DNA of 64,000 bases from a virus. Positions within the stretch are counted from its first letter, which is position 1. Each line of letters opens with the position of its first letter. Positions 7,805 through 64,000 of the stretch are shown one piece after another. The stretch is taken from the IMG/VR virus record IMGVR_UViG_3300032607_001425, positions 1-64,000 of that record, one strand, 5' to 3'. A model generated the notes under the pieces. The model was not told the DNA's origin, searched no databases, and saw only the letters and a program-made list of their open reading frames with translations. The position numbers and the translations under genes are program-made.

Positions 7805-7915
7805 TTAGCGCCCTCTCCTGCTTTTTACTATGCTTTCAATAATCAATCCAAAACCTATTACAAATCCTCCAACGACGCATCCTCCTGCTATCGCTCCTAC
7901 TATTGCATGTATCAT
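7805..7915 (-). CDS. Small glycine-rich membrane peptide, 36 aa
   Basis: ATG at 7915 opens MIHAIVGAIAGGCVVGGFVI. One glycine-rich hydrophobic segment is followed by a basic tail KSRRGR. It overlaps the upstream gene by ATGA, which supports translation. The Gly-zipper pattern suggests that copies may pack together in the membrane. Confidence 0.6.
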   Translation of the reverse strand: MIHAIVGAIAGGCVVGGFVIGFGLIIESIVKSRRGR

Positions 7916-8010
7916 ATTGTATCTATTTGTTCTTGCGTTAAACTATCTCTCCATTTGTTGATGTAAGTCTCTTCTTCATCACATAGCGCTTGTAATTCTT
8001 CGTCTGTCAT
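7912..8010 (-). CDS. Small acidic protein, 32 aa
   Basis: ATG at 8010 opens MTDEELQALCDEEETYINKW and TGA overlaps the next ATG. Helical and acidic. It is the first gene after the promoter at 8038-8068. Function unknown. Confidence 0.58.
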   Translation of the reverse strand: MTDEELQALCDEEETYINKWRDSLTQEQIDTI

Positions 8011-8037
8011 AACCTTTATTTGTTTGTTTCTAATACT

Positions 8038-8068
8038 TAAAGATACGCAAAAAGAGTTACCGAAGCAA
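8038..8068 (-). promoter_or_regulatory. Promoter for the 6184-8010 operon
   Basis: Minus-strand TTG (8066-8068), 20 bases, TATCTTTA (8038-8045), overlapping the hairpin at 8050-8075. Confidence 0.72.
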
Positions 8069-8075
8069 CTCTTTT
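8050..8075 (-). terminator. Terminator with TTCG loop overlapping a promoter
   Basis: The minus strand forms an 11-bp stem (AAAAGAGTTGC/GTAACTCTTTT, one G-U) closed by TTCG, then T and the -7 box. It would end the 8093-9449 operon. Confidence 0.72.
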
Positions 8076-8092
8076 GTCAATTATTTTTAAAA

Positions 8093-8332
8093 CTATAATT
8101 CGTTCTCTGGTGTTCCTGTTAATGAATCTTCTGAAATGTATTTTGCATTCACTTGCTCCTTGAGTACTTCTCTTAGATACTTTACGTTATCAACTCCTCC
8201 TACTCCTCGTATAGCTTTCTGAGGATCTTTGAATAATTTGTCGTGAGTCTTTCCATTCTTTTTGATAACTTGGAAATAGTTACCATTGACAGCTGCCATT
8301 AATTCTTTTGGTGTTTTTACTTTTGCGTCCAT
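8093..8332 (-). CDS. Small basic hypothetical protein, 79 aa
   Basis: Starts MDAKVKTPKELMAAVNGNYF. Lysine-rich first half, acidic end (SEDSLTGTPENEL). It is the last gene of the operon headed by the DUF932 gene. No family recognised. Confidence 0.68.
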   Translation of the reverse strand: MDAKVKTPKELMAAVNGNYFQVIKKNGKTHDKLFKDPQKAIRGVGGVDNVKYLREVLKEQVNAKYISEDSLTGTPENEL

Positions 8333-8382
8333 AACTTACTTTTTACTTATTTACTATTACTATATCTAACTATACTGAAGTA

Positions 8383-8619
8383 TTAGTCGATATAAATAAG
8401 GCTTCCTGCTTGATCTTCTATTTTTGTTACATCCATCTTCTTGTCCATGAACTCTAATACGAATGGTCCATTCATTTGGAAGTACATATTAAAAGTTTGT
8501 TGGAATACTTCAAACGGAGGTGTAGGTCTATTTCTATCCTTATTGTCTAGGAAGTATTGGTAGAACCAGGCCAAATCATATTGGCCTGATCTTCTCATCT
8601 GTATATACTGCTCTCTCAT
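8383..8619 (-). CDS. Hypothetical protein, 78 aa
   Basis: Starts MREQYIQMRRSGQYDLAWFY. Rich in aromatic residues, Gln and Met (FQQTFNMYFQMNGPFVLEFM). Its start touches the stop of 8619-9449, so the two are translationally coupled. Function unknown. Confidence 0.7.
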   Translation of the reverse strand: MREQYIQMRRSGQYDLAWFYQYFLDNKDRNRPTPPFEVFQQTFNMYFQMNGPFVLEFMDKKMDVTKIEDQAGSLIYID

Positions 8620-43105: not shown

Positions 43106-43890
43106 ACTGCTGTCTTATGTGCTTGGTTGAGTAAAAACTGTACATTACTCTCAATTAGTTCACGATTAACACTTGACATATCAAACGTCTCTAAGAAGTT
43201 ATGAGGTGTAGGGGTGCGTGTTGTATGATCTTTTGTAAAATCCTGTCCTAGAGACGCTGCAAACACTGGATATACTGAGTCAGTACTCCTCATCATTGGA
43301 TGATCATAGTATGCGAACTCTGTTGGATCTCCTTGTCCTAAACAGTGAATAGGCTTTACTAATAATCCTTTTTCCTTCAAGTAATCATATGCCATGTGAC
43401 GTGCTTCCTTAATTCCTTGATCGTCTGTATAATTTTCTAGGAATACATTTGGTACTGCTATTTTTGAAAATCCTATTATATCAATCCAACTTTGGTTTAT
43501 TGCCCAGTTGTATGCATTCAACCATGCTTCTTTAGTCTCTCCTTGTGGACAGAAAAAGATATCAATCGTTCCTAACAATCCTTCTTGCTCCATACGATCT
43601 CTAAACATTCTCGCATTAGCAATTGTATCCTCTTTATTAAATAAAACGTCTGGTGCTATTACTTCGTCAGGCATTAACTCTCTACAGATTTCAATTAAGA
43701 TATCTTCTGTTACCAATGCTCTTTCAGCTGCTGAGTTATCTAATGTAATGAACTTTCCTTGCTCTTTTTGATCTAGGATAAATGCTCTGTACTCTGGAAA
43801 CTGAACCCATAAGTGAGCCAATGCGAAGATGCGATCTCCCAACTTCATTGGCTCTAAGTCACTTACTGGTGATATTACGTATACGTCCAT
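43093..43890 (-). CDS. dpdA: DpdA-like DNA-guanine transglycosylase, 265 aa
   Basis: A TIM-barrel TGT-like enzyme: KFITLDNSAAERALVTEDIL carries the region where TGTs have their first catalytic Asp, followed by PDEVIAPDVLFNKEDTIANA. IDIIGFSKIAVPN is a later strand. Viral DpdA proteins use this scaffold to exchange guanine in DNA for a 7-deazaguanine base. It lacks the zinc-site Cys cluster of tRNA TGTs, as expected for DpdA. The FolE/QueD/QueE genes nearby supply the base. Recognition is moderate. Confidence 0.7.
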   Translation of the reverse strand: MDVYVISPVSDLEPMKLGDRIFALAHLWVQFPEYRAFILDQKEQGKFITLDNSAAERALVTEDILIEICRELMPDEVIAPDVLFNKEDTIANARMFRDRMEQEGLLGTIDIFFCPQGETKEAWLNAYNWAINQSWIDIIGFSKIAVPNVFLENYTDDQGIKEARHMAYDYLKEKGLLVKPIHCLGQGDPTEFAYYDHPMMRSTDSVYPVFAASLGQDFTKDHTTRTPTPHNFLETFDMSSVNRELIESNVQFLLNQAHKTAVWKS

Positions 43891-43893
43891 TAT

Positions 43894-44649
43894 TTATTTT
43901 TTTAATTGTTTATATTCATATATTTGCTTTACCATACTAAAAAAATCCTGTTCTGGCAAATCCATTTTCATTTTATTAATGTGCTTATGAACCCACTGTA
44001 TATTTCCTAGTACATATCCCTGCTTTGAGTCTATCCTATCAAGAGAAGCTGTGCTAATCTCCTTTGCTCCAAGAGTTCCTTTACCCTTGTCTGAAAATTC
44101 TATCTGCATATTTGATATAGCACATCGTCTGTTTTGTTGTTCGTACAGCTCATACAAATACTGTGGAGTTACTAGCCATTGCTTCTTTCTTAATCTAGCA
44201 CCCTGTTCGTAACGTCTTATATCTCCCATTGGTATACATCCTACTTTTTCTACTAGATACTTTTGCAATCTACACTTTTCACACTGTGTTGATAAGCCTC
44301 TTGTTATGTGAGATGTTCTAATATGCTTTTCTGTTCCACAGTCGCATCTACAATTGTACTGACGTTCTAGTATATTTCCATTCTTCCTATATAGAAGTGT
44401 ATAGTCGTTCACGTCTATTACAGTCCACTTTCCAAAGCGTTTTCCAGTTACAATTCCTGCTTTTGGCTTTTTTGCATAGCAGGAGGTGCATTGCTTAGTA
44501 ACTCCTCTTAGTAGGTCTGTTTGTCGTTGTTGTTTAGTAAATCCACAATCACAGATACAATCAATCTTTTGAGCTGTGTGTGTTTGCGTAACTGTCCAAT
44601 GCCAGAAGCGATCTCCTGCTTGCACTTTAATAGTAGAAATATCAGCCAT
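43894..44649 (-). CDS. HNH-type endonuclease with zinc repeats, 251 aa
   Basis: Two pairs of zinc-like Cys clusters (IDCICDCGFTKQQRQTDLLR, QCTSCYAKK; YNCRCDCGTEKHIRTSHITR, QCEKCRLQK) precede an HNH core (QNRRCAISNMQIEF, then TASLDRIDSKQGYVLGNIQW and VHKHINKMK). Free-standing homing-type endonuclease between folE and dpdA. A late-type motif is about 17 bases upstream of its start. Confidence 0.85.
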   Translation of the reverse strand: MADISTIKVQAGDRFWHWTVTQTHTAQKIDCICDCGFTKQQRQTDLLRGVTKQCTSCYAKKPKAGIVTGKRFGKWTVIDVNDYTLLYRKNGNILERQYNCRCDCGTEKHIRTSHITRGLSTQCEKCRLQKYLVEKVGCIPMGDIRRYEQGARLRKKQWLVTPQYLYELYEQQNRRCAISNMQIEFSDKGKGTLGAKEISTASLDRIDSKQGYVLGNIQWVHKHINKMKMDLPEQDFFSMVKQIYEYKQLKK

Positions 44650-44665
44650 AGTTATAGTATTTTAT

Positions 44666-44678
44666 TATAAATATAGCC
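44666..44678 (-). promoter_or_regulatory. Late-type promoter motif
   Basis: The minus strand reads GGCTATATTTATAATAAAA before the HNH start at 44649. Confidence 0.35.
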
Positions 44679-44699
44679 AATATTCCTAAAGCAAGATTT

Positions 44700-45350
44700 T
44701 TACAGTCTTGAGTTTTCAATCAAACTAAAAAACTCTTGGCGAGTGCCTATCTCATTGGTGTAGAAGTATTGGGATAGTTGAGATGTTTTCATTACACTTT
44801 CGTGATTCAAACCTCTACATCTTACACAATTATGCTGACTCTCAATAACTACTGCCACTCCTCTGTTACCAATACACAGCTTATCGACGTGGTCGTGGAT
44901 CTGCTTTGTAAGCGATTCCTGAACTTGTGGTCTGCGGCTGTAGAAGTCTACAATACGGTTCAACTTACTTAGTCCAATAACCTGATCTGTCTTTCCAGTT
45001 CCTGGGATGTATGCAACATGGGCCAATCCCAAAAATTGTAAATTATGGTGTCCACACATACTTATTACAGGAATTCGAGTCTGACAGATAAGTCCTGTGT
45101 ACCCTTCATCGTTAGGGAAGCTAGTAATAACTGGCTCGGCACTTACACTACCTGCAATAAGATCATTGATCCAAGCCTTTGCTACTCTCTTTGGAGTATT
45201 GGCTGAGTGTGGATCTTTTTCCCAATCAAATCCCAAAGCATTTAAAAACTGTCCATAGTAGATAGCTGCTTGGTCAATCATTTGGAGTTTCTCTTCTGCT
45301 GTACGTGGCATGTTTCCATTTGCCTTCTGTAACAATTCTAACTGTTTCAT
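44700..45350 (-). CDS. folE: GTP cyclohydrolase I (FolE), 216 aa
   Basis: Catalytic region [20 protein letters not shown] (Cys-Gly-His-His), [20 protein letters not shown] and [20 protein letters not shown] (Cys pair of the zinc site) are all intact. It makes dihydroneopterin triphosphate from GTP, the first step of 7-deazaguanine synthesis. Length normal. Confidence 0.95.
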
Positions 45351-45355
45351 ATAAC

Positions 45356-45829
45356 TTATATTTTGTTTTGTTCTTTTAATATACTAAATAATTCTGATAA
45401 TCCCAACTCATTATCTCTTTTTTCTGCTTCTTCGAATGTTAAAGTATCTTTTGGATCTTTACGAGCTTCAAACCTTCTTTTACGCTCTGCACTACTAACC
45501 TCCAACCATTTGTATTCTAACTCTACGTTCTTAAACTGCTCAGTAAGCCATCGTTCAATTGGTTGTAAAACTGTATACTGTCTGATTCCATCTATGATGT
45601 AACACTCTGGTGATCCTTCAGCGTAGGCCATGTAGTTCCAGATAGTCTTAACTATTTCATCTACAATTCTAGTATCAAGATGCTTGGAATTTTGTAACAC
45701 CTCTCTATCCTCAGATTGCATTAATTCCTTAACAAAATCTGAAACTATTAGCTTTACTGAATGCTCGTCGTTGTGGTTGTATGTGCTCTTGCCTGAGCAT
45801 ATCTCTCCAAATAAAAATACTACTTTCAT
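45356..45829 (-). CDS. P-loop nucleotide kinase-like protein, 157 aa
   Basis: The P-loop is [31 protein letters not shown] is the base-binding region and [14 protein letters not shown] the lid Arg cluster, a layout like T4-type deoxynucleotide monophosphate kinases. It lies between folE and the T-fold gene, so it may phosphorylate a modified nucleotide or ordinary dNMPs. Specificity not visible. Confidence 0.7.
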
Positions 45830-46170
45830 TATTTCTCAACTATTCCAAAGAACTCTCCGTCTTCTGACACTGAGCACTTATCTAGGTTAAACTGTACTAG
45901 TAAATCCTCTGCAATATGCTCACAAGACATGCTTCCAAAGTTACAGCAGCTATATGTAGCATCGTACCACTTCTCTTGTATGTACGATCTAATTTTGTGC
46001 TTAAAATCAATAAACTCTGTTTCTCTATTTGAGTGACCTACTTCCAGCATGCATGCTACTTGGAATGTATGTCTGTGTGGATATTTTAGGTACTGTACAT
46101 TTGGTAGATTACAATCATCCCAACAGTGTAGTCCTTCTATATCAATTCTTACTTCTATACTTTTTTTCAT
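45829..46170 (-). CDS. QueD-related T-fold protein, DpdL-like candidate, 113 aa
   Basis: Second start used: ATG at 46170 (MKKSIEVRIDIEGLHCWDDC). Blocks NLPNVQYLKYPHRHTFQVAC, NRETEFIDFKHKIRSYIQEK and NFGSMSCEHIAEDLL follow the 6-pyruvoyl-tetrahydropterin/QueD plan, with His residues placed for metal binding but without the QueD Cys motif. From memory, a QueD paralogue (DpdL) decarboxylates the base in Cellulophaga phages. The frame continues upstream into an HNH gene with no stop. Confidence 0.6.
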   Translation of the reverse strand: MKKSIEVRIDIEGLHCWDDCNLPNVQYLKYPHRHTFQVACMLEVGHSNRETEFIDFKHKIRSYIQEKWYDATYSCCNFGSMSCEHIAEDLLVQFNLDKCSVSEDGEFFGIVEK

Positions 46171-46776
46171 AATATTTCCTTTATACTTTCTTATTTTTAA
46201 ATTTTCTTCCCAACTAATAAATCGTAGGTTGGTTAAATCTGATACTTGTTCGGGAGTCCATCCTTCGTACCAGCAGTCTATTATTGGTCTTATGTGGTCA
46301 ATTTGATATGCTCCAGGTATTCCTGCCCTACCTCTTTTATCCTCAACATACCCTTCTATCTGCTCCTTTACTCGTTCAGTAAGTACCACTACTCTATTAC
46401 GAAACTGCTTATAAGTTTGTTGTGTATTGTGATACTTAAATTTACCATAATTTGGATTACGATCTCCTGCAGTACCTCCACTAAGCTGCTTAGTTTGTTT
46501 AATTTTCTCCCTAGTCACTTCATCCCTAGGCACTCCCCTATTCCATGCAGGCTTACCTTTACTTGGATTATTTTGAAGAAACCTTTGAGACTGTTTAAGT
46601 ACTGCTTCAGGATCTGACCATCGTTTATTATTACTTGCCGTTGTTGCACAGCTTTTGCATACCCGACCTTCTTTTTCAAACCGCTTAGCAGTGTCATCTG
46701 CTCTTTTTTGGCTATGTAATGATGTATTTTGAATTAAACTCCTACAGTCACTGCATATTCTACTTGATTTGTACAT
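46171..46776 (-). CDS. HNH homing endonuclease in frame with the T-fold gene
   Basis: ATG at 46776 opens MYKSSRICSDCRSLIQNTSL. CSDC and CKSC zinc pairs, then a central NPNYGKFKYHNTQQTYKQFR and HNH core (GIPGAYQIDHIRPIIDCWYE, NLRFISWEENLKIRKYKG). There is no stop before MKKSIE at 46170, so the HNH can be read as a 315-aa fusion with the T-fold protein. Other HNH genes here end at this same point (PWLDNLRKR-stop). A late-type motif precedes 46776. Confidence 0.75.
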
Positions 46777-46788
46777 ACTATCTTTTAG

Positions 46789-46801
46789 TATAAATAGTAG
46801 G
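46789..46801 (-). promoter_or_regulatory. Late-type promoter motif
   Basis: The minus strand reads CCTACTATTTATACTAAAA before ATG at 46776. Confidence 0.38.
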
Positions 46802-46831
46802 GAATTCACATTAACCGTTATATGGAACAGG

Positions 46832-47311
46832 TTACTTGTAGTCCTTTTCTCCCAACCATTGACCGTTGTAGGCCTCTGCATCGTTATTATCAAATACGAT
46901 AATTTGGGCCACTCTTGCGCCTTTTTCTATTGTAATTGGTCGAGTTGCAATAAGTACTGCTCCCATTTCATCCACATAGAAAGATGGATCATAAACTCCT
47001 GACGTAATGGTTGCTCCACATCTTAGAACACTTGATCTGTGTCTGATGAAAGCTGTCTTGTTACTTGGAAGTTTTACTCCTTGTTCGAATGTTAGGCTGT
47101 AGCTTCCTGGACTAAGATTATATACTATTTTACCTTCTTTGGTAAAGGTTGGTACTTCTAGGTACGGCAATACTACAGTCTTATCTGAGGATACTGTTCC
47201 TCCTACAATCTGCTTAACTTCTTTCAGAGTTAGATCATAACCTACTTGAGCTTTCGCCCCTTTACCATTTGCCTGTAGAAGCTGTTCTACTTGGTTTGCG
47301 TTGTTTAGCAT
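46832..47311 (-). CDS. dUTPase/dCTP-deaminase family protein, 159 aa
   Basis: AQVGYDLTLKEV, then TAFIRHRSSVLRCGATITSG with VYDPSFYVDEMGAVLIATRP and ITIEKGARVAQIIVF follow the trimeric dUTPase/dCTP deaminase fold. RHRSSVLRCG is the dCTP-deaminase-like variant of the motif usually R-S-S-x5-G. It lowers dUTP or makes dUMP for thymidylate synthase. Own promoter upstream. Confidence 0.8.
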   Translation of the reverse strand: MLNNANQVEQLLQANGKGAKAQVGYDLTLKEVKQIVGGTVSSDKTVVLPYLEVPTFTKEGKIVYNLSPGSYSLTFEQGVKLPSNKTAFIRHRSSVLRCGATITSGVYDPSFYVDEMGAVLIATRPITIEKGARVAQIIVFDNNDAEAYNGQWLGEKDYK

Positions 47312-47326
47312 AACTTTATTTTTTTA

Positions 47327-47357
47327 CTAATATACAAAGAAGCCTCCGAAGAGGCAA
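47327..47357 (-). promoter_or_regulatory. Promoter for the dUTPase-like gene
   Basis: Minus-strand TTG (47355-47357), 20 bases, TATATTAG (47327-47334), overlapping the hairpin at 47338-47359. Confidence 0.68.
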
Positions 47358-47359
47358 CT
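47338..47359 (-). terminator. Terminator with TTCG loop overlapping a promoter
   Basis: The minus strand GCCTC-TTCG-GAGGC is a very stable hairpin followed by TTCTTT. Confidence 0.72.
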
Positions 47360-47362
47360 TTT

Positions 47363-47563
47363 TTATTCGATTATTTTAATAATTTTTGTCTGAGCTACTC
47401 GAATTACTTCGAAGTTGCTCTCTCCTTCAAACTCTTTATAGATCTTACTTTCTGCTTCTGTTGCTGAAACTGCATCTACTATATACTGCTCGTTTACTCT
47501 TTGTACTTTTCCCTTATCACTTTCGTGCTGTAACTGTACCGTTACTTGCCAATAATTGTTCAT
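47363..47563 (-). CDS. Small hypothetical protein, 66 aa
   Basis: Starts MNNYWQVTVQLQHESDKGKV. The pattern VDAVSATEAESKIYKEFEGE resembles small phage beta-alpha-beta proteins (DUF4494-like), which begin W-x-V-x-V and have the VxAxSxxEAExx helix; a tentative match. Function unknown. Confidence 0.6.
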   Translation of the reverse strand: MNNYWQVTVQLQHESDKGKVQRVNEQYIVDAVSATEAESKIYKEFEGESNFEVIRVAQTKIIKIIE

Positions 47564-47579
47564 GTTTATTTAATTTTAG

Positions 47580-47984
47580 TTATTTTTTTAAGTAATCTTG
47601 AATTGCTTCTGAGTCCTTTCTTTCCCATGGATAAATTATCCACTCATCCCCTTGGTGCACTTCTGCAAACATGCTTGGTGTAAATACTGATGTGTGAGGT
47701 TTATAATGGAGAACTGCTGTTGGAACTCCTTGCACTAGTGCTTTTAACGTTTCTCCTGTATCACAAATATCATCTATGACCAATGTACTTGCATTAATAG
47801 ATTCTACGTAAGGAATGTTCAGTCTGTGTGAGATCATTACTGCTGGTACCAATCCTCCTCTTTCAATTCCTGTTACACTTTTTATGTCAGGTCCTACTCT
47901 CTGAATTGTAATACATAGTTTGTTTACTAGTTCATCTACGTCATCCCAACTTAGATAAATTTTATTACCTGCTTTTAATGCCAT
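47580..47984 (-). CDS. Phosphoribosyltransferase-type protein, 134 aa
   Basis: The PRPP-binding loop TLVIDDICDTGETLKALVQG is diagnostic of type I phosphoribosyltransferases, and VTGIERGGLVPAVMISHRLN is the N-terminal PPi-binding loop. It is short for Gpt or Hpt (about 150-180 aa). Expected reaction: base plus PRPP to nucleotide. Located between QueE and dUTPase-like genes, so it could salvage purines or process a deazaguanine base. Confidence 0.83.
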   Translation of the reverse strand: MALKAGNKIYLSWDDVDELVNKLCITIQRVGPDIKSVTGIERGGLVPAVMISHRLNIPYVESINASTLVIDDICDTGETLKALVQGVPTAVLHYKPHTSVFTPSMFAEVHQGDEWIIYPWERKDSEAIQDYLKK

Positions 47985-48262
47985 TACACTTTTGCTATTG
48001 TAATACCTTCTACTCCTGTAATAACAATCTCTCCTACTGCTAATTGTATTGTATCGTTTTGAAGTTCTGCTGTAACATACTTTACTAGTTCCTGTACCGA
48101 TACTTTATCTTTGAATCCAGCTTTGCTTGAATTGCTTACAATTAGTTCTAAGTTTGTAGCATCTATTAATTTGTAATCCCAGATGTAAAGTCCATCTGCT
48201 TTAGGATATGATTTTAAAAGGTCTCTGTCTTGTGCTAAATTAATTAGGTCTTGTAACGTCAT
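47984..48262 (-). CDS. Hypothetical protein, 92 aa
   Basis: Starts MTLQDLINLAQDRDLLKSYP. Small alpha/beta protein (LYIWDYKLIDATNLELIVSN). Its end touches the start of the phosphoribosyltransferase gene. Function unknown. Confidence 0.65.
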   Translation of the reverse strand: MTLQDLINLAQDRDLLKSYPKADGLYIWDYKLIDATNLELIVSNSSKAGFKDKVSVQELVKYVTAELQNDTIQLAVGEIVITGVEGITIAKV

Positions 48263-48268
48263 TTTTAT

Positions 48269-48454
48269 TTATTTAATTGTGTATTTGGTTTTACCGTCTT
48301 GTGTTTGTGCTTTTATTTCTCCATTTGCTAGAACTGTTAGTTCTAGTTCAAACTCTTCTTTTAAAAGCCTCTTTACTGTAACAATGTTCATTGCCCTGTG
48401 CTTCCACATAGTGTGGAATACTCTTAATGTTTCCTCTGCATTTGCTTTTCTCAT
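48269..48454 (-). CDS. Small hypothetical protein, 61 aa
   Basis: I use ATG at 48454 (MRKANAEETLRVFHTMWKHR), which overlaps the queE stop as TAATG; the longer frame from 48499 lies inside queE. Basic and helical, with NGEIKAQTQDGKTKYTIK at the end. Function unknown. Confidence 0.62.
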   Translation of the reverse strand: MRKANAEETLRVFHTMWKHRAMNIVTVKRLLKEEFELELTVLANGEIKAQTQDGKTKYTIK

Positions 48455-49242
48455 TACACTTCTCTTTGGTCCTGAAATGCAATTATGTGAGGTCTCCAAG
48501 TTAATCTATAACCATTATCTCTCACCCAATCAAATAATTTTGGATATGATTTGAATAAAGCCTCTCTTGTATCTCCTGCTGGCATGAAATATATCTTGTC
48601 TTGAGGAATATCCATCATTCGAATAAAATCTATTATCTCTCCTAGGGCTACTTGATCTTCTCCATCCCATACTGGTTTTAAATGGTAATCAGAATGATAT
48701 GTAATCATTTTAGACATTGCATCATAATTAAGTCTTAGCTTGTTGTGTTGCTTAATCATTTTTTCATCCGTAACATCTCCTTGAGGAGTAAGTACTCCGA
48801 CTTTAGGTATCGAGTTACTAAATTTAGGTGATATGGAAAGTAAATTAATAGGATAGTCAGTCTCCAGAAAATGACTTCCTTCAGTTTCAATAGTGATAAA
48901 TATCTTTCTTTCATGTGCAAAATGCGTTAGTTCATTTACTAATTTAGGCCACATAGTTGGGCTTCCGCCTGTAAGCATCATCTCTGTGATGTGTGGATTT
49001 TCATTATAAATCCTAATTATATCATCAAAACTATATTTTGATTTATCAGGATGGATACTCGTGTACCAACTGTCGCACCAACCGCCTTCACCGAAATAGC
49101 AGCGGTGAGTGCAGCCTGTAGTTCGAATTACTACTGTAGGGTATCCAGCTCTACTCCCCTCTGATTGCACCGCTGTATAGAGCTCAGTAATTGCTGAGAT
49201 TTTATTTTTCTCCGCTTCTGTCATTCTTGTTATTTGTCCCAT
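48454..49242 (-). CDS. queE: 7-carboxy-7-deazaguanine synthase (QueE), 262 aa
   Basis: Radical SAM enzyme: VIRTTGCTHRCYFGEGGWCD holds the cluster Cys in an atypical C-x3-C-x7-C spacing. MLTGGSPTMWPKLVNEL is the SAM/metal G-G-x-P motif, and LLSISPKFSNSIPKVGVL the later substrate block. With FolE and QueD it makes CDG. It is longer than many phage QueE enzymes. Confidence 0.88.
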   Translation of the reverse strand: MGQITRMTEAEKNKISAITELYTAVQSEGSRAGYPTVVIRTTGCTHRCYFGEGGWCDSWYTSIHPDKSKYSFDDIIRIYNENPHITEMMLTGGSPTMWPKLVNELTHFAHERKIFITIETEGSHFLETDYPINLLSISPKFSNSIPKVGVLTPQGDVTDEKMIKQHNKLRLNYDAMSKMITYHSDYHLKPVWDGEDQVALGEIIDFIRMMDIPQDKIYFMPAGDTREALFKSYPKLFDWVRDNGYRLTWRPHIIAFQDQREV

Positions 49243-49715
49243 CGTAATGTTATGTGTTGATTTAGTAATTTATCTTTATATTTAATGTAGTATTCAATTA
49301 AGTAGTCCAACTCTCTTTGTTTACAATTCTCTTTAGAGGCCTCTTCTATTACTTCAAACTTAATCTTTTCAGGAGCATTATCGTAAGCAGCTTGTAAATA
49401 CTTATTGAAGTGATTACCTCTCTTTAAAGAGGCGTAGTGTCCTTGACTTCTCTCTCTCAATAAGCCTCTTCCTATATAGAATTCTTCAGTATCAATATTC
49501 CCTATTCTATAAATTCCATACCCACCTCTTAGTATAAAAGCCTTTGAATGTTTGCTAGAATTTCCTTTTTCCCTATTCCAAGACTTTCTACACTCTTTAC
49601 ACCTAGACTCTATTCCGTCTTTCCTACTTTTACTTTTGTAAAAATACTCGAATTCTAACTCCTTGCTGCAGATACAGCAGACTTTAGTTTTGGTACCTAC
49701 CGTATTGCTACCCAT
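49230..49715 (-). CDS. GIY-YIG endonuclease with N-terminal zinc cluster, 161 aa
   Basis: N-terminal CCICSKELEFEYFYKSKSRK then CKECRKSW forms a zinc cluster, followed by GIYRIGNIDTEEFYIGRGLL (GIY-YIG core) with RSQGHYASLKRGNHFNKYLQ and conserved Glu in KIKFEVIEEA. It ends 13 bases inside queE. No structured leader is seen upstream; the start overlaps the 49697-49999 gene by 19 bases. Confidence 0.82.
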   Translation of the reverse strand: MGSNTVGTKTKVCCICSKELEFEYFYKSKSRKDGIESRCKECRKSWNREKGNSSKHSKAFILRGGYGIYRIGNIDTEEFYIGRGLLRERSQGHYASLKRGNHFNKYLQAAYDNAPEKIKFEVIEEASKENCKQRELDYLIEYYIKYKDKLLNQHITLRWDK

Positions 49716-49999
49716 TCATAGGTAATTTTTTCTACTTTTTCTACTCTAGTTAGTTCTGAGAAATTATCTTCAAATCCATAATTATCATCCCAAACTACTT
49801 CATTAGTTTGCCATGTTCCTAAGTACTTATCAAAATCTTCTATATCTGTAAAATGATTTTTATGTTCTGGTAAAAATTCTATAATGTCTGTTCTATAAAA
49901 ATTGGATCCTCTTCTATGGTCCATATCGCTATCTATTGAGAATTCATCTATTTCATCAAACAATAATGGCTCTTCTTGGTATGTTACTCTGTTTATCAT
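49697..49999 (-). CDS. Hypothetical acidic protein, 100 aa
   Basis: Starts MINRVTYQEEPLLFDEIDEF. Acidic (about one residue in four D or E), many aromatic residues (FYRTDIIEFLPEHKNHFTDI), no known motif. It starts one base before the 2H phosphoesterase gene ends. Function unknown. Confidence 0.66.
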   Translation of the reverse strand: MINRVTYQEEPLLFDEIDEFSIDSDMDHRRGSNFYRTDIIEFLPEHKNHFTDIEDFDKYLGTWQTNEVVWDDNYGFEDNFSELTRVEKVEKITYEWVAIR

Positions 50000-50000
50000 C

Positions 50001-50540
50001 TTATCTTAGTTTAATTTGTAATTCAATTTTGTCTCCATTTGGTTTAGAGTATACAGCATGTGTTGGAGTTAATTCAAATTCCTGTCCTTTTAACATCTCA
50101 ACATATTTTTTACCAGTTCCTGGTTTTAAATAAGCAATAGTTGCATGAGGGTGATAATCAGGAAAATTTGTTGTATGAGGATATTTAGTCAATTCAGCAT
50201 TAGTTTCATGTAAGCTAGGACCTTTAACATTAAACTTAAATACATCGTATTGAGGATTATTAAATATAGAAGCATTAAATAATTTACAAGTTCCGAATTT
50301 AAATTTATCTAGAACATTAATTACATCCTCATCTGATACCTCTTCATGTAAACCAAATAATAGTGTAGTATGTGGTTCATCTTCAAAGCCAAATGATCTA
50401 TCACCTTCCTCGGTGTATGCATCTTCGGGGTTTATAACATTTTGGACTTTACTCATTTCAGGAAAATCAAAGTATAACATAGCACACCCGAACTCAAATT
50501 TCTGTTTTTCTTCCTTAAGAAGATCCATTAATTTTATCAT
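50001..50540 (-). CDS. 2H phosphoesterase-superfamily protein, 179 aa
   Basis: Start chosen at ATG 50540 (MIKLMDLLKEEKQ), one base after the queD stop. Two H-x-T motifs, EPHTTLLFG (about residue 60) and YHPHATIAYLKPG (about residue 130), mark the 2H superfamily (2'-5' RNA ligase, CPDase, Acb1). It could cut cyclic-nucleotide signals of CBASS as Acb1 does, or heal RNA ends with the ligase. Low certainty on role. Confidence 0.78.
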   Translation of the reverse strand: MIKLMDLLKEEKQKFEFGCAMLYFDFPEMSKVQNVINPEDAYTEEGDRSFGFEDEPHTTLLFGLHEEVSDEDVINVLDKFKFGTCKLFNASIFNNPQYDVFKFNVKGPSLHETNAELTKYPHTTNFPDYHPHATIAYLKPGTGKKYVEMLKGQEFELTPTHAVYSKPNGDKIELQIKLR

Positions 50541-50541
50541 C

Positions 50542-51006
50542 TTACTCTCCATATATTGCTGAATTTTTATGGTTTTCAAAAAATTGTACTTGAGTAACGT
50601 GGACTCTACCCGCTGTTTCCTCTTGTATGAATGCGTCTAGTTTTTCGTAAATATACTTTGCAAATTGCTCTGCTCCTATTACCGATAAGACTCTTACTTG
50701 AGCTACTCCTGCTTCATCCATTTTCTTAAACGATTCTAAGAAAGGATCATCCTCAGATACTATAAGAGTGTGGTCAAACATATAGTCCATCCACTCTTTT
50801 GCATTCATACCATCAATCTTTGTTTTTGCTCTTTTTAAAATTCCAAAATCAGCTACCCAGTTTCTATGGTCTAAGTCACCTTGAAAAGTAACATCAAAGT
50901 ATACGTCATAGCCATGTAGTTTCGAACAGTGCGTATCATCTGCTTTCCATTGACGAAATACCGTACTAAATCCTTCATACCTTTTTTTACTTCTAAATTT
51001 TTCCAT
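50542..51006 (-). CDS. queD: QueD, 6-carboxytetrahydropterin synthase, 154 aa
   Basis: YEGFSTVFRQWKADDTHCSK and LHGYDVYFDVTFQG hold the zinc His and the Cys near the end of strand one. WVADFGILKRAK and MFDHTLIVSEDDPF are the other signature blocks. It converts dihydroneopterin triphosphate to CPH4, step two of the pathway. Length normal for phage QueD. Confidence 0.88.
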   Translation of the reverse strand: MEKFRSKKRYEGFSTVFRQWKADDTHCSKLHGYDVYFDVTFQGDLDHRNWVADFGILKRAKTKIDGMNAKEWMDYMFDHTLIVSEDDPFLESFKKMDEAGVAQVRVLSVIGAEQFAKYIYEKLDAFIQEETAGRVHVTQVQFFENHKNSAIYGE

Positions 51007-58757: not shown

Positions 58758-59456
58758 TTATTTTTTAGAATATTTCCAGATAAATCCTCCTGCAGTTTTT
58801 ACCTTACCTTTTATACAGGTCGAGATGTTCCCTTTATCTATTCCTAGATCTTCACTGGCTTCTCTTCCTGAAGACCATTCTCTGATGAATCTTCCATCTC
58901 TATTGTATTGATTGATAGCTTTTTTGTTTTTCTCTGCTATTAGCTTATAATCTGTATTTTCTACCTTTATTATAAAGTTGGTATTTTTAATCCTTGCTGC
59001 TTCATCTCTACTAGCTGCTGATTTATTTCTGTTTCCTTTTCCTTCCTCGGTCATATTATAGACCCTTAGAGTCTCTGCTATTTGGGACTTTACCTCAACC
59101 CCCTTGGAAGTACTGTAGAGAAGCTTCTTAGCTGCTTTTATTTTATCCACTGTATTTTGGGAATGTACAGTCTTAGCTTCCTGCGTACTCTGTAACTTAC
59201 AGTTTAATCCATTTTCAGATAGAACATCGTAATATTCTTGCCAGTGTCTCTCACGAATGTTTAGTTCCTCTACCTTACACTGTTCTACTATTTCAAAGAT
59301 ATGCTCAGGGAAACCGTATTTTACTAGTGAGGCATAAAGTCTTATCTGATTCTTGCATCCTTTTCTAGCGTAAATTTTCTGCCTTGTTTCCAAGTCAGTA
59401 CTCTGCCCAATATATACTCTTCCCGTTGGACTTATAATTTTATAAATTCCTATCAT
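58758..59456 (-). CDS. GIY-YIG homing endonuclease, 232 aa
   Basis: GIYKIISPTGRVYIGQSTDL core, then RIYASLVKYGFPEHIFEIVE with the conserved Glu. The C terminus INQYNRDGRFIREWSSGREA and DLGIDKGNISTCIKGKVKTA resembles a NUMOD1/IENR1 DNA-binding element. It is a paralogue of the 39383-40018 endonuclease in the N-terminal half. Its leader is the structured RNA at 59463-59550. Confidence 0.88.
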   Translation of the reverse strand: MIGIYKIISPTGRVYIGQSTDLETRQKIYARKGCKNQIRLYASLVKYGFPEHIFEIVEQCKVEELNIRERHWQEYYDVLSENGLNCKLQSTQEAKTVHSQNTVDKIKAAKKLLYSTSKGVEVKSQIAETLRVYNMTEEGKGNRNKSAASRDEAARIKNTNFIIKVENTDYKLIAEKNKKAINQYNRDGRFIREWSSGREASEDLGIDKGNISTCIKGKVKTAGGFIWKYSKK

Positions 59457-62356: not shown

Positions 62357-63007
62357 TTACACTCTAGCCTCATGATGATCCCTAGGAAGTGATGATTTTC
62401 TAACAGGCCTATCTTTGAGAATTTTAAGTACTTCATCCATCGAAATTGGTTCCAGACCATTTCCATCACATCCTACATCCATTGCTCTTCCCTCCATAAC
62501 TCTTAGGTGTGGTGGTAAGTGGACATGTCCAAACAGATGTATATTTTCATTGTTCATTCCGTCCCAACTAATGATAGGAAAATGCATGCAAACAAATGTA
62601 AAGCTCTCTGTTGTTGCTTTGTTGATTGGCCTTCTTACTTCAAGTCTTACGTATTGACTTACTGAAGAGAATAGTTTTTGTACTCCCTCTTTGTTCCTTT
62701 CGATATGGTGATCGTGATTTCCAAGTACCAGGTGAATGTTTTTACAAAGTATTCTATCTCTAAATTCTTGTATCTTTTCAAATCCTCCGAATGAAAAATC
62801 TCCTAAGTGGATTAAGATGTCATCTTCACCAACCATGCAGTTAATGTTGTTCACTAAAGTATCGTTCATATGATCAAGTGACTTAAACTCTCTTGTGAAG
62901 TTTGAAGCACCTTCCCATTTCGTAGTAGCACTACAAATGTTTGAGTGAGCGTAATGTGTGTCTGATGTGAAGAACAATTGTTGTCCTTTTTGTAATGTAA
63001 TTCTCAT
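62357..63007 (-). CDS. Metallophosphoesterase, 216 aa
   Basis: LFFTSDTHYAHSNICSATTK (D-x-H), DDILIHLGDFSFGGFEKIQE (GD), LVLGNHDHHIE (GNHD), CMHFPIISWDG and LFGHVHLPPH (GHVH) are in family order. Distinct from the 55429-56151 protein in sequence (different spacing after GNHD). Similar phage enzymes are often annotated as predicted phosphoesterases. Substrate not visible. Confidence 0.9.
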   Translation of the reverse strand: MRITLQKGQQLFFTSDTHYAHSNICSATTKWEGASNFTREFKSLDHMNDTLVNNINCMVGEDDILIHLGDFSFGGFEKIQEFRDRILCKNIHLVLGNHDHHIERNKEGVQKLFSSVSQYVRLEVRRPINKATTESFTFVCMHFPIISWDGMNNENIHLFGHVHLPPHLRVMEGRAMDVGCDGNGLEPISMDEVLKILKDRPVRKSSLPRDHHEARV

Positions 63008-63073: not shown

Positions 63074-64000
63074 TTAAATAAATTTTGATATATGAAACTC
63101 AATTAATTGTTGAGCTTTAGAAACATCCTCAACCCTAAGTTGTAAATTATTATCAGCGACTTTAGATAAAGTATCTAAATCTACCAATGTTACTGTGGAG
63201 AGTTGTGTTACATCGTGATCTACGTTAGCAGGTACTGATAGATCGAGTATTAATTTTGGGTTGTTATCGATATTGTTTTTGTTTAGTATAGGTGTTTCAG
63301 CATTTGTAGCTACTATTACTATGTCAGATACAAATATGTTTGCTTTTAGAGTATTGTAATGTGCTTTACCAACATGAAGTTCTTTTGAAAGTAAATCACT
63401 TACCTCCTCTGTCCTATTCATTAATGTAATTTTAGTACAGTGGAGATAGTCGATTAAATTTTTACAAGTGCTTCTTCCCATCTTGCCCATACCTACTATT
63501 AGTATATTTTTAGTACTTGCATCTGGAATATTCTTTTTTATGTATTCAATGGCTACTGATGATACTGAGACTATTCCTTTACTTAGGTTAGTATTATTTT
63601 TAACTTGTCTTGAGATGTGGATGACTTTGTTAGTTATTTTTTCTAACTTTCCTCCTAATTTTTGTGCTGTTTTAGATTTATTAATAGCACTTTTTAGTTG
63701 ACCTATTATTTCATAGTCACCAAGTATTTGTGAATCTAATCCACATGCTACTTGTGAAAGATGTCTCAAAGCATCTTCCCTACTTTTTATATAACATTGA
63801 TCGATAAAGTCATCCTTTGTTCCTTCTGTCTCAGAACATAGTAGTTCAATTAAACTATCAATACTAGGTCCATACCCATATATCTCAGTCCTATTACAAG
63901 TTGATAGAATAAAGAAGTTTGATAAGTTATTTGTAAGAAGTTTTTTGTACTTACTATCTGAGATAGAATATTTACCTCTTGTTAGTACATTTGATTTTTT
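63074..64000 (-). CDS. hemA: Glutamyl-tRNA reductase HemA-like, partial, 308 aa visible
   Basis: The frame is open at the right edge. It carries ILSTCNRTEIYGYG (catalytic Cys of GluTR), HLSQVACGLDSQILGDYEII (substrate block), VIHISRQVKNNTNLSKGIVS and the NADPH loop ILIVGMGKMGRSTCKNLIDY. It ends soon after DLSVPANVDHD and DDLDTLSK-type segments (VDLDTLSKVADNN), at the start of the dimerisation helix, so the C-terminal dimerisation domain (about 100 residues) is missing. GluTR makes glutamate-1-semialdehyde for tetrapyrroles. Finding one in a phage is unusual. Confidence 0.85.
   Translation of the reverse strand, partial: KKSNVLTRGKYSISDSKYKKLLTNNLSNFFILSTCNRTEIYGYGPSIDSLIELLCSETEGTKDDFIDQCYIKSREDALRHLSQVACGLDSQILGDYEIIGQLKSAINKSKTAQKLGGKLEKITNKVIHISRQVKNNTNLSKGIVSVSSVAIEYIKKNIPDASTKNILIVGMGKMGRSTCKNLIDYLHCTKITLMNRTEEVSDLLSKELHVGKAHYNTLKANIFVSDIVIVATNAETPILNKNNIDNNPKLILDLSVPANVDHDVTQLSTVTLVDLDTLSKVADNNLQLRVEDVSKAQQLIEFHISKFI

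What the first reader, a model, noticed from the sequence alone, without database searches (positions are those of the whole stretch)
63074..64000. A phage-borne glutamyl-tRNA reductase without its dimerisation domain
LSTCNRTEIY and the NADPH loop show GluTR. The visible C terminus stops where the V-shaped dimer's spine helix should begin. GluTR is the regulated first step of heme and B12-type tetrapyrrole synthesis and the enzyme also binds charged tRNA-Glu. A truncated form could bypass host feedback, act as a monomer, or titrate glutamyl-tRNA. I do not know a characterised phage GluTR.
Basis: partly seen in the sequence, partly recalled or inferred. Interest (0 to 1): 0.74.

Follow-up and report, generated by a model that had tools for sequence, protein, structure and literature searches.

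The report
Short phage GluTR beside bilin genes
A phage that is a close relative of a Flavobacterium virus carries a shortened version of the enzyme that starts heme synthesis, placed directly after two genes that turn heme into a coloured bilin pigment, which suggests that the virus feeds its own pigment pathway at the point where the host's supply would limit it.

Summary
Confirmed and extended. The window's right edge cuts a complete 321-aa glutamyl-tRNA reductase (GluTR) gene; its remaining 39 bases lie just beyond. The catalytic and NADPH domains are intact, but the protein ends about 22 residues into the spinal helix and the dimerisation domain (PF00745) is absent from the whole 102-kb record. 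Two further phage lineages encode equally short GluTRs (336-337 aa, 41-43% identical). The three form one clade, whereas all 80 nearest bacterial homologues have 395-434 aa. Both other short-GluTR lineages also encode heme oxygenase and bilin reductase. The published phage cassette has ALA synthase (Shemin pathway) in the third place; here it is the C5-pathway enzyme. The phage is collinear with cultured Flavobacterium phage immuto, which lacks the cassette, so the contig is not chimeric. Best reading: an auxiliary metabolic gene that supplies glutamate semialdehyde, and so heme, to phage-encoded bilin synthesis, as a stripped, probably monomeric GluTR. Enzyme activity is inferred, not shown. 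New variant of a known kind.

The parts
63074..64000 (-). Glutamyl-tRNA reductase (GluTR/HemA/GtrR), 321 aa, two-domain form; the first 39 bases of the gene lie just beyond the window (record 64001-64039). The other two cassette genes lie wholly beyond the window on the same strand: bilin reductase at record 64058-64702 (214 aa, 18 bp upstream of GluTR) and heme oxygenase at record 64686-65216 (176 aa, overlapping the bilin reductase by 17 bp)
   Evidence: GluTR. Bilin reductase: PF05996 E 2.3e-27. Heme oxygenase: PF01126 E 6.9e-11
63074..63142 (-). C-terminal end of GluTR: start of the spinal helix (residues 299-320), after which the 70-90-residue dimerisation part of bacterial GluTR is absent
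   Evidence: model helix 299-320; alignment A6 column 340
62357..63007 (-). Calcineurin-like phosphoesterase directly downstream (66 bp gap); 75% identical to the immuto phage gene; flank of the inserted cassette

Best explanation
The gene is a phage auxiliary metabolic gene for a catalytically competent GluTR reduced to its catalytic and NADPH-binding domains. It is co-transcribed with heme oxygenase and a ferredoxin-dependent bilin reductase (gene overlap and 18-bp gap; co-transcription is inferred). During infection it reduces charged glutamyl-tRNA to glutamate-1-semialdehyde; the host aminomutase HemL makes ALA, host enzymes make heme, and the phage heme oxygenase and bilin reductase convert heme to a phycobilin-type bilin. 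Loss of the dimerisation domain would make the enzyme a monomer (or differently assembled), uncouple it from the V-shaped dimer into which the host aminomutase is thought to dock, and remove any control acting through that domain. Shown here: gene identity, domain content, conserved catalytic residues, cassette order, co-occurrence with the bilin pair in all three lineages, common ancestry of the short form, cassette absent from the cultured relative. Inferred: enzyme activity, monomeric state, flux to bilin, physiological purpose.
For: TIGR01035 above its equivalog cut-off. Catalytic Cys48 in STCNRTE, His93 and the GxGxxG loop are invariant among 41 phage and bacterial GluTRs and kept here. 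AlphaFold model mean pLDDT 94; best solved match is GluTR 5yjl, Z 35.5, rmsd 2.3 over 313 residues, and the spinal helix stops early. Three-gene order heme oxygenase, bilin reductase, GluTR on one strand with 17-bp overlap and 18-bp gap. The two other short-GluTR lineages (G001/G003 and G004) also carry heme oxygenase and bilin reductase, 37 kb and 10 kb away. The three short GluTRs form one clade, 99/98 support with the C-terminal columns left out (99/96). All 80 best bacterial relatives are full length. No aminomutase (PF00202) or ALA synthase in any of these phages, so the host must supply the next step. The flanks match Flavobacterium phage immuto, which lacks all three genes.
Against: No activity data. 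No ferredoxin of the Fer2 type in the record, so bilin reduction would depend on host electron donors. The heme oxygenase of this clade lacks the distal Asp (Asp140 of human HO-1), although active plant HO-1 also lacks it (PMC7948506). 0 of 395 Bacteroidota genomes have a bilin reductase, so no host use for the product is known. Most phages with the pair lack GluTR: 0 of 40 further records, many of them fragments.
Confidence: 0.6

Rival explanations
1. General heme booster: the short GluTR raises ALA and heme for respiration or heme proteins of the infected cell, and its place beside the bilin genes is secondary.
For: Wegner et al. argue this for phage ALA synthase (PMC11480375). In two lineages GluTR is 10-37 kb away from the bilin pair. 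A separate Flavobacterium-type phage (L141/G005) has a GluTR with a dimerisation domain and no bilin genes in its 132-kb fragment.
Against: All three short-GluTR lineages hold the bilin pair, and in this record the gene is the last of a tight cassette that also destroys heme.
Confidence: 0.22
2. The truncated protein is not a productive GluTR but captures or hydrolyses glutamyl-tRNA, for example to slow host translation or to keep glutamyl-tRNA from the host's pathway.
For: The catalytic domain that holds glutamyl-tRNA is intact and the dimer domain is lost. GluTR can cleave glutamyl-tRNA without NADPH (own knowledge, not checked here).
Against: The NADPH-binding domain is fully kept and conserved between lineages. 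The link to heme oxygenase and bilin reductase is unexplained. The phage's own tRNA-Glu is no special sign, since immuto also encodes one without GluTR.
Confidence: 0.08
3. Decaying or inactive gene, recently truncated after capture from a Bacteroidota host.
For: Loss of a whole domain; long branches in the tree.
Against: Three lineages 41-43% identical keep open frames of 321-337 aa and the catalytic residues. The short form is monophyletic and so old, not a recent accident.
Confidence: 0.05
4. Assembly chimera or bacterial contamination placing a host gene on a phage contig.
For: GluTR matches in the annotated phage collection look like such contaminants.
Against: Flanks on both sides are collinear with a complete cultured phage; this GluTR groups with GluTRs of other phages and is short like them.
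Confidence: 0.02

Closest known systems
Viral hemO - pcyA/X - valaS cassette of pelagiphages and freshwater phages (Wegner et al. 2024, PMC11480375)
   Same: Phage cassette joining heme oxygenase and a PcyA/X-type bilin reductase with the first committed enzyme of ALA synthesis; the bilin pair has the same order, with overlapping genes, as in pelagiphage Mosig
   Different: Third gene is GluTR of the C5 pathway, not ALA synthase of the Shemin pathway; phage is Immutovirus-like and the host probably Flavobacteriia; bilin reductase only 30-33% identical to pelagiphage PcyX
Bacterial GluTR / HemA (TIGR01035), nearest Chitinophagaceae and Flavobacteriaceae
   Same: Catalytic domain with Cys48 and His93, NADPH domain, 38-48% identity
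NCBIfam NF001909 (PRK00676), a 338-position GluTR model, recalled as chlamydial
   Same: A naturally short GluTR, so a short form is not without precedent; matched at E 2.4e-21
   Different: Far below that family's cut-off (76 against 478 bits) and not its close relative; the taxon is from memory, not tested
Flavobacterium phage vB_FspM_immuto_2-6A (Immutovirus, NC_055915)
   Same: Same gene order, 49-93% identity in most shared genes; same phosphoesterase flank
   Different: Has tRNA genes directly before the phosphoesterase and lacks heme oxygenase, bilin reductase and GluTR

Membership tests
Glutamyl-tRNA reductase (GluTR, TIGR01035) | Score above the curated equivalog cut-off | tested here: met
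   245.7 bits against 209.55, E 8e-73
Glutamyl-tRNA reductase (GluTR, TIGR01035) | N-terminal catalytic domain PF05201 with the STCNRTE cysteine and the conserved histidine | tested here: met
   PF05201 123 bits; C48 and H93 invariant in 41 sequences
Glutamyl-tRNA reductase (GluTR, TIGR01035) | NADPH-binding domain with glycine-rich loop | tested here: met
   PF01488 87.7 bits; G183, G185, G188 invariant; model matches 5yjl, a GluTR-NADPH complex
Glutamyl-tRNA reductase (GluTR, TIGR01035) | C-terminal dimerisation domain PF00745 (typical of the family; a 338-position GluTR model exists in NCBIfam, so perhaps not in all members) | tested here: not met
   No match in the protein or the record at E 0.1; protein ends at M. 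kandleri residue 319. It is therefore called a two-domain variant of GluTR, not a canonical dimeric GluTR
Glutamyl-tRNA reductase (GluTR, TIGR01035) | NADPH-dependent reduction of glutamyl-tRNA to glutamate semialdehyde | not testable with these tools
   needs assay or complementation
Viral hemO - pcyA/X - valaS cassette | Heme oxygenase and PcyA/X-like bilin reductase adjacent | tested here: met
   17-bp overlap, same strand
Viral hemO - pcyA/X - valaS cassette | ALA synthase as third gene | tested here: not met
   No ALA synthase (TIGR01821) match in the record; GluTR in its place. Works like the cassette, is not a member of it
PcyA (NF002760) for the adjacent bilin reductase | Score above the equivalog cut-off | tested here: not met
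   105 bits against 206; a general Fe_bilin_red (PF05996) protein well above Pfam's cut-off. Residues aligned with PcyA Glu76, His88 and Asp105 are kept as E50, H61, D78
Canonical heme oxygenase for the adjacent gene | Proximal His ligand | tested here: met
   His12 invariant in alignment A7
Canonical heme oxygenase for the adjacent gene | Distal Gly-Asp (Asp140 of HO-1) | tested here: not met
   Asp replaced by Ile

The most novel reading that the evidence does not exclude
A minimal GluTR that works as a monomer without the dimerisation domain is used by Bacteroidota phages as the entry enzyme of a phage-run route from glutamyl-tRNA to a bilin, in hosts that have no bilin reductase of their own.
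Probability: 0.42. Interest if true: 0.78.

Novelty: new variant of a known kind. Interest (0 to 1): 0.66.

Why it matters
Phage ALA synthase was explained partly by economy: one Shemin enzyme instead of the two of the C5 pathway (PMC11480375). This cassette does the opposite: it takes the tRNA-dependent C5 enzyme alone, in shortened form, and leaves the second step to the host. Two unrelated routes to ALA joined to the same heme oxygenase and bilin reductase pair would show that phages repeatedly reinforce the start of the pathway to drive bilin synthesis. The short GluTR also allows a direct test of a basic enzymology question: does GluTR need its dimerisation domain? Finally, a whole clade of such pairs occurs in phages (at least 50 contigs) while no bilin reductase was found in 395 Bacteroidota genomes, so the use of the bilin is an open question.

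Tried and rejected
Single-protein scan of viral contigs with the window protein found no relative; alignment-based scans were needed. All eight GluTR matches in the annotated phage collection were set aside: one record is an Acinetobacter chromosomal contig (hemA beside lolB, a tetratricopeptide gene and dnaG), the others unannotated wastewater or faecal contigs with bacterial gene context where it was looked at. Out-of-frame dimerisation domain: rejected (66 bp of room; no PF00745 match). Phage-encoded aminomutase, ALA synthase and plant-type ferredoxin: not found. Exact-DNA scan for close relatives of this GluTR in viral contigs: none. A dN/dS test on GluTR itself was impossible because the three near copies are identical. 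Papers on the effect of removing the dimerisation domain, and the original GluTR structure papers, were not in the library.

Full report
Observation. The frame at window 63074-64000 (minus) is open to the window's edge. The window is the first 64,000 bases of a 102,119-bp viral record. Fetching the rest shows that only 13 codons were missing: the gene is record 63074-64039, ATG start, 321 aa. It is a GluTR by the curated hemA model (245.7 bits, cut-off 209.6), with the N-terminal catalytic and NADPH domains and no dimerisation domain. The best solved relatives are GluTRs of M. kandleri and Arabidopsis.

The missing domain. Bacterial relatives carry 70-90 more residues after the point where this protein ends. 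The AlphaFold model (mean pLDDT 94.2) matches Arabidopsis GluTR 5yjl with Z 35.5 over 313 residues and ends at M. kandleri residue 319. No dimerisation domain is found anywhere in the record. The stop codon is 66 bp from the next gene, an intact phosphoesterase, so a hidden out-of-frame domain is excluded.

Is it general? Alignment-based scans of IMG/VR found GluTR in two more short lineages: L010/L011/L012 (three contigs with identical genes, 337 aa) and L013 (336 aa), and one longer copy in L141 (393 aa). In trees with the C-terminal columns left out, the three short proteins form one clade (99/98), and L141 falls inside Flavobacterium; holding all four together is rejected (AU p 1.3e-6). 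So the short form is old and shared, and phages have taken GluTR at least twice. The 80 best bacterial relatives have 395-434 aa. In a sample of 395 Bacteroidota genomes 313 have the GluTR N-terminal domain, and every match listed (the best ones; the list was cut) sits in a frame of 398 aa or more. The scans use short peptide patterns, so further phage GluTRs with other motifs would be missed.

The cassette. Eighteen bp upstream of GluTR on the same strand is a ferredoxin-dependent bilin reductase (214 aa, record 64058-64702, PF05996 E 2.3e-27) and, overlapping it by 17 bp, a heme oxygenase (176 aa, record 64686-65216, PF01126 E 6.9e-11). A six-member profile of this heme oxygenase group matches solved heme oxygenases down to E 9e-24. 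Both other short-GluTR lineages carry the same pair: 37 kb from GluTR in G001 and G003, 10 kb away in G004. G002 has GluTR too near its end to show the pair. Their heme oxygenases and bilin reductases are 50-52% and 45-54% identical to those here. A pair of heme oxygenase and PcyA/X with ALA synthase is known from phages (Wegner et al. 2024, PMC11480375); that paper names GluTR only as the host enzyme and as a control. No phage here has ALA synthase or an aminotransferase of the HemL class.

Phage and host. The record is collinear with Flavobacterium phage immuto (NrdA 93%, GroEL 92%, RecA-like recombinase 87%, phosphoesterase 75%). Immuto has tRNA genes directly before the phosphoesterase and lacks the three genes. 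The cassette is therefore best seen as an accessory insertion, the contig is not chimeric at this place, and the host is most likely a flavobacterium (inference). Flavobacteria have their own full-length GluTR; none of 395 Bacteroidota genomes has a bilin reductase.

How it works. Best supported: glutamyl-tRNA to glutamate semialdehyde by the phage enzyme, then host steps to heme, then phage heme oxygenase and bilin reductase to a bilin. In the bilin reductase, the residues aligned with Glu76, His88 and Asp105 of PcyA are kept, while pelagiphage PcyX has Asp at the first position; which bilin is made is open. The heme oxygenase keeps its proximal His but not the distal Asp. This holds in every member of the clade whose motif could be read, while pelagiphage enzymes keep it. 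Plant heme oxygenase also lacks that Asp and is active (PMC7948506), and this clade's genes are under purifying selection (dN/dS 0.08-0.39 for heme oxygenase). So an active enzyme is plausible, not shown. The GluTR dimerisation domain is where FLU acts in plants (PMC4726326); whether bacterial control acts through it is unknown, so escape from feedback remains a conjecture.

Limits. All records with the cassette are metagenomic. No activity, expression or host link was measured. Co-occurrence rests on three lineages. GluTR is the exception among phages with the pair: 0 of 40 further records carry it, many being fragments.

Noticed in passing
record 64686-65216 (L002:4686-5216) and L142, L143, L151-L204: The heme oxygenase of this phage clade lacks the distal Asp (Asp140 of HO-1) in every locus whose motif could be read (about 50), yet is under purifying selection; pelagiphage enzymes keep it.
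   Followed up: partly
L151-L204, L014-L019: Heme oxygenase and bilin reductase pairs of this clade are common in IMG/VR: 52 of 54 newly fetched loci have both side by side, and the two others are cut at the contig end, while 0 of 395 Bacteroidota genomes have a bilin reductase.
   Followed up: partly
L141:7989-9170: A second, independent phage GluTR of Flavobacterium type, 393 aa, with most of the dimerisation domain (PF00745 positions 1-79 of 99), on a 132-kb viral contig without the bilin pair.
   Followed up: partly
L142:4827-5141 and L143:6902-7210: A small protein of unknown function (102-104 aa, 33% identical to each other, E 6e-15) follows the bilin reductase in the two other short-GluTR lineages; in the window's phage GluTR takes that place.
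   Followed up: no
L002:8550-12880 (record 68550-72880): Array of 21 tRNA genes with anticodons for nearly all amino acids, including tRNA-Glu(ttc); immuto also has tRNA-Glu without GluTR.
   Followed up: no
window 58758-59456; L002:5291-6124; L003:4891-5661, 7901-8617: Many proteins that look like GIY-YIG-type homing endonucleases are scattered through the record, one directly upstream of the heme oxygenase; they could have mobilised the cassette (by eye).
   Followed up: no
window 43228-51000: Homologues of immuto's queuosine-type genes (QueD, QueE, FolE, a weak DpdA match), which suggests 7-deazaguanine DNA modification.
   Followed up: no
annotated phage collection, H1-H8: GluTR genes on records named as phages (e.g. 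Acinetobacter phage MD-2021a) look like bacterial contamination.
   Followed up: yes
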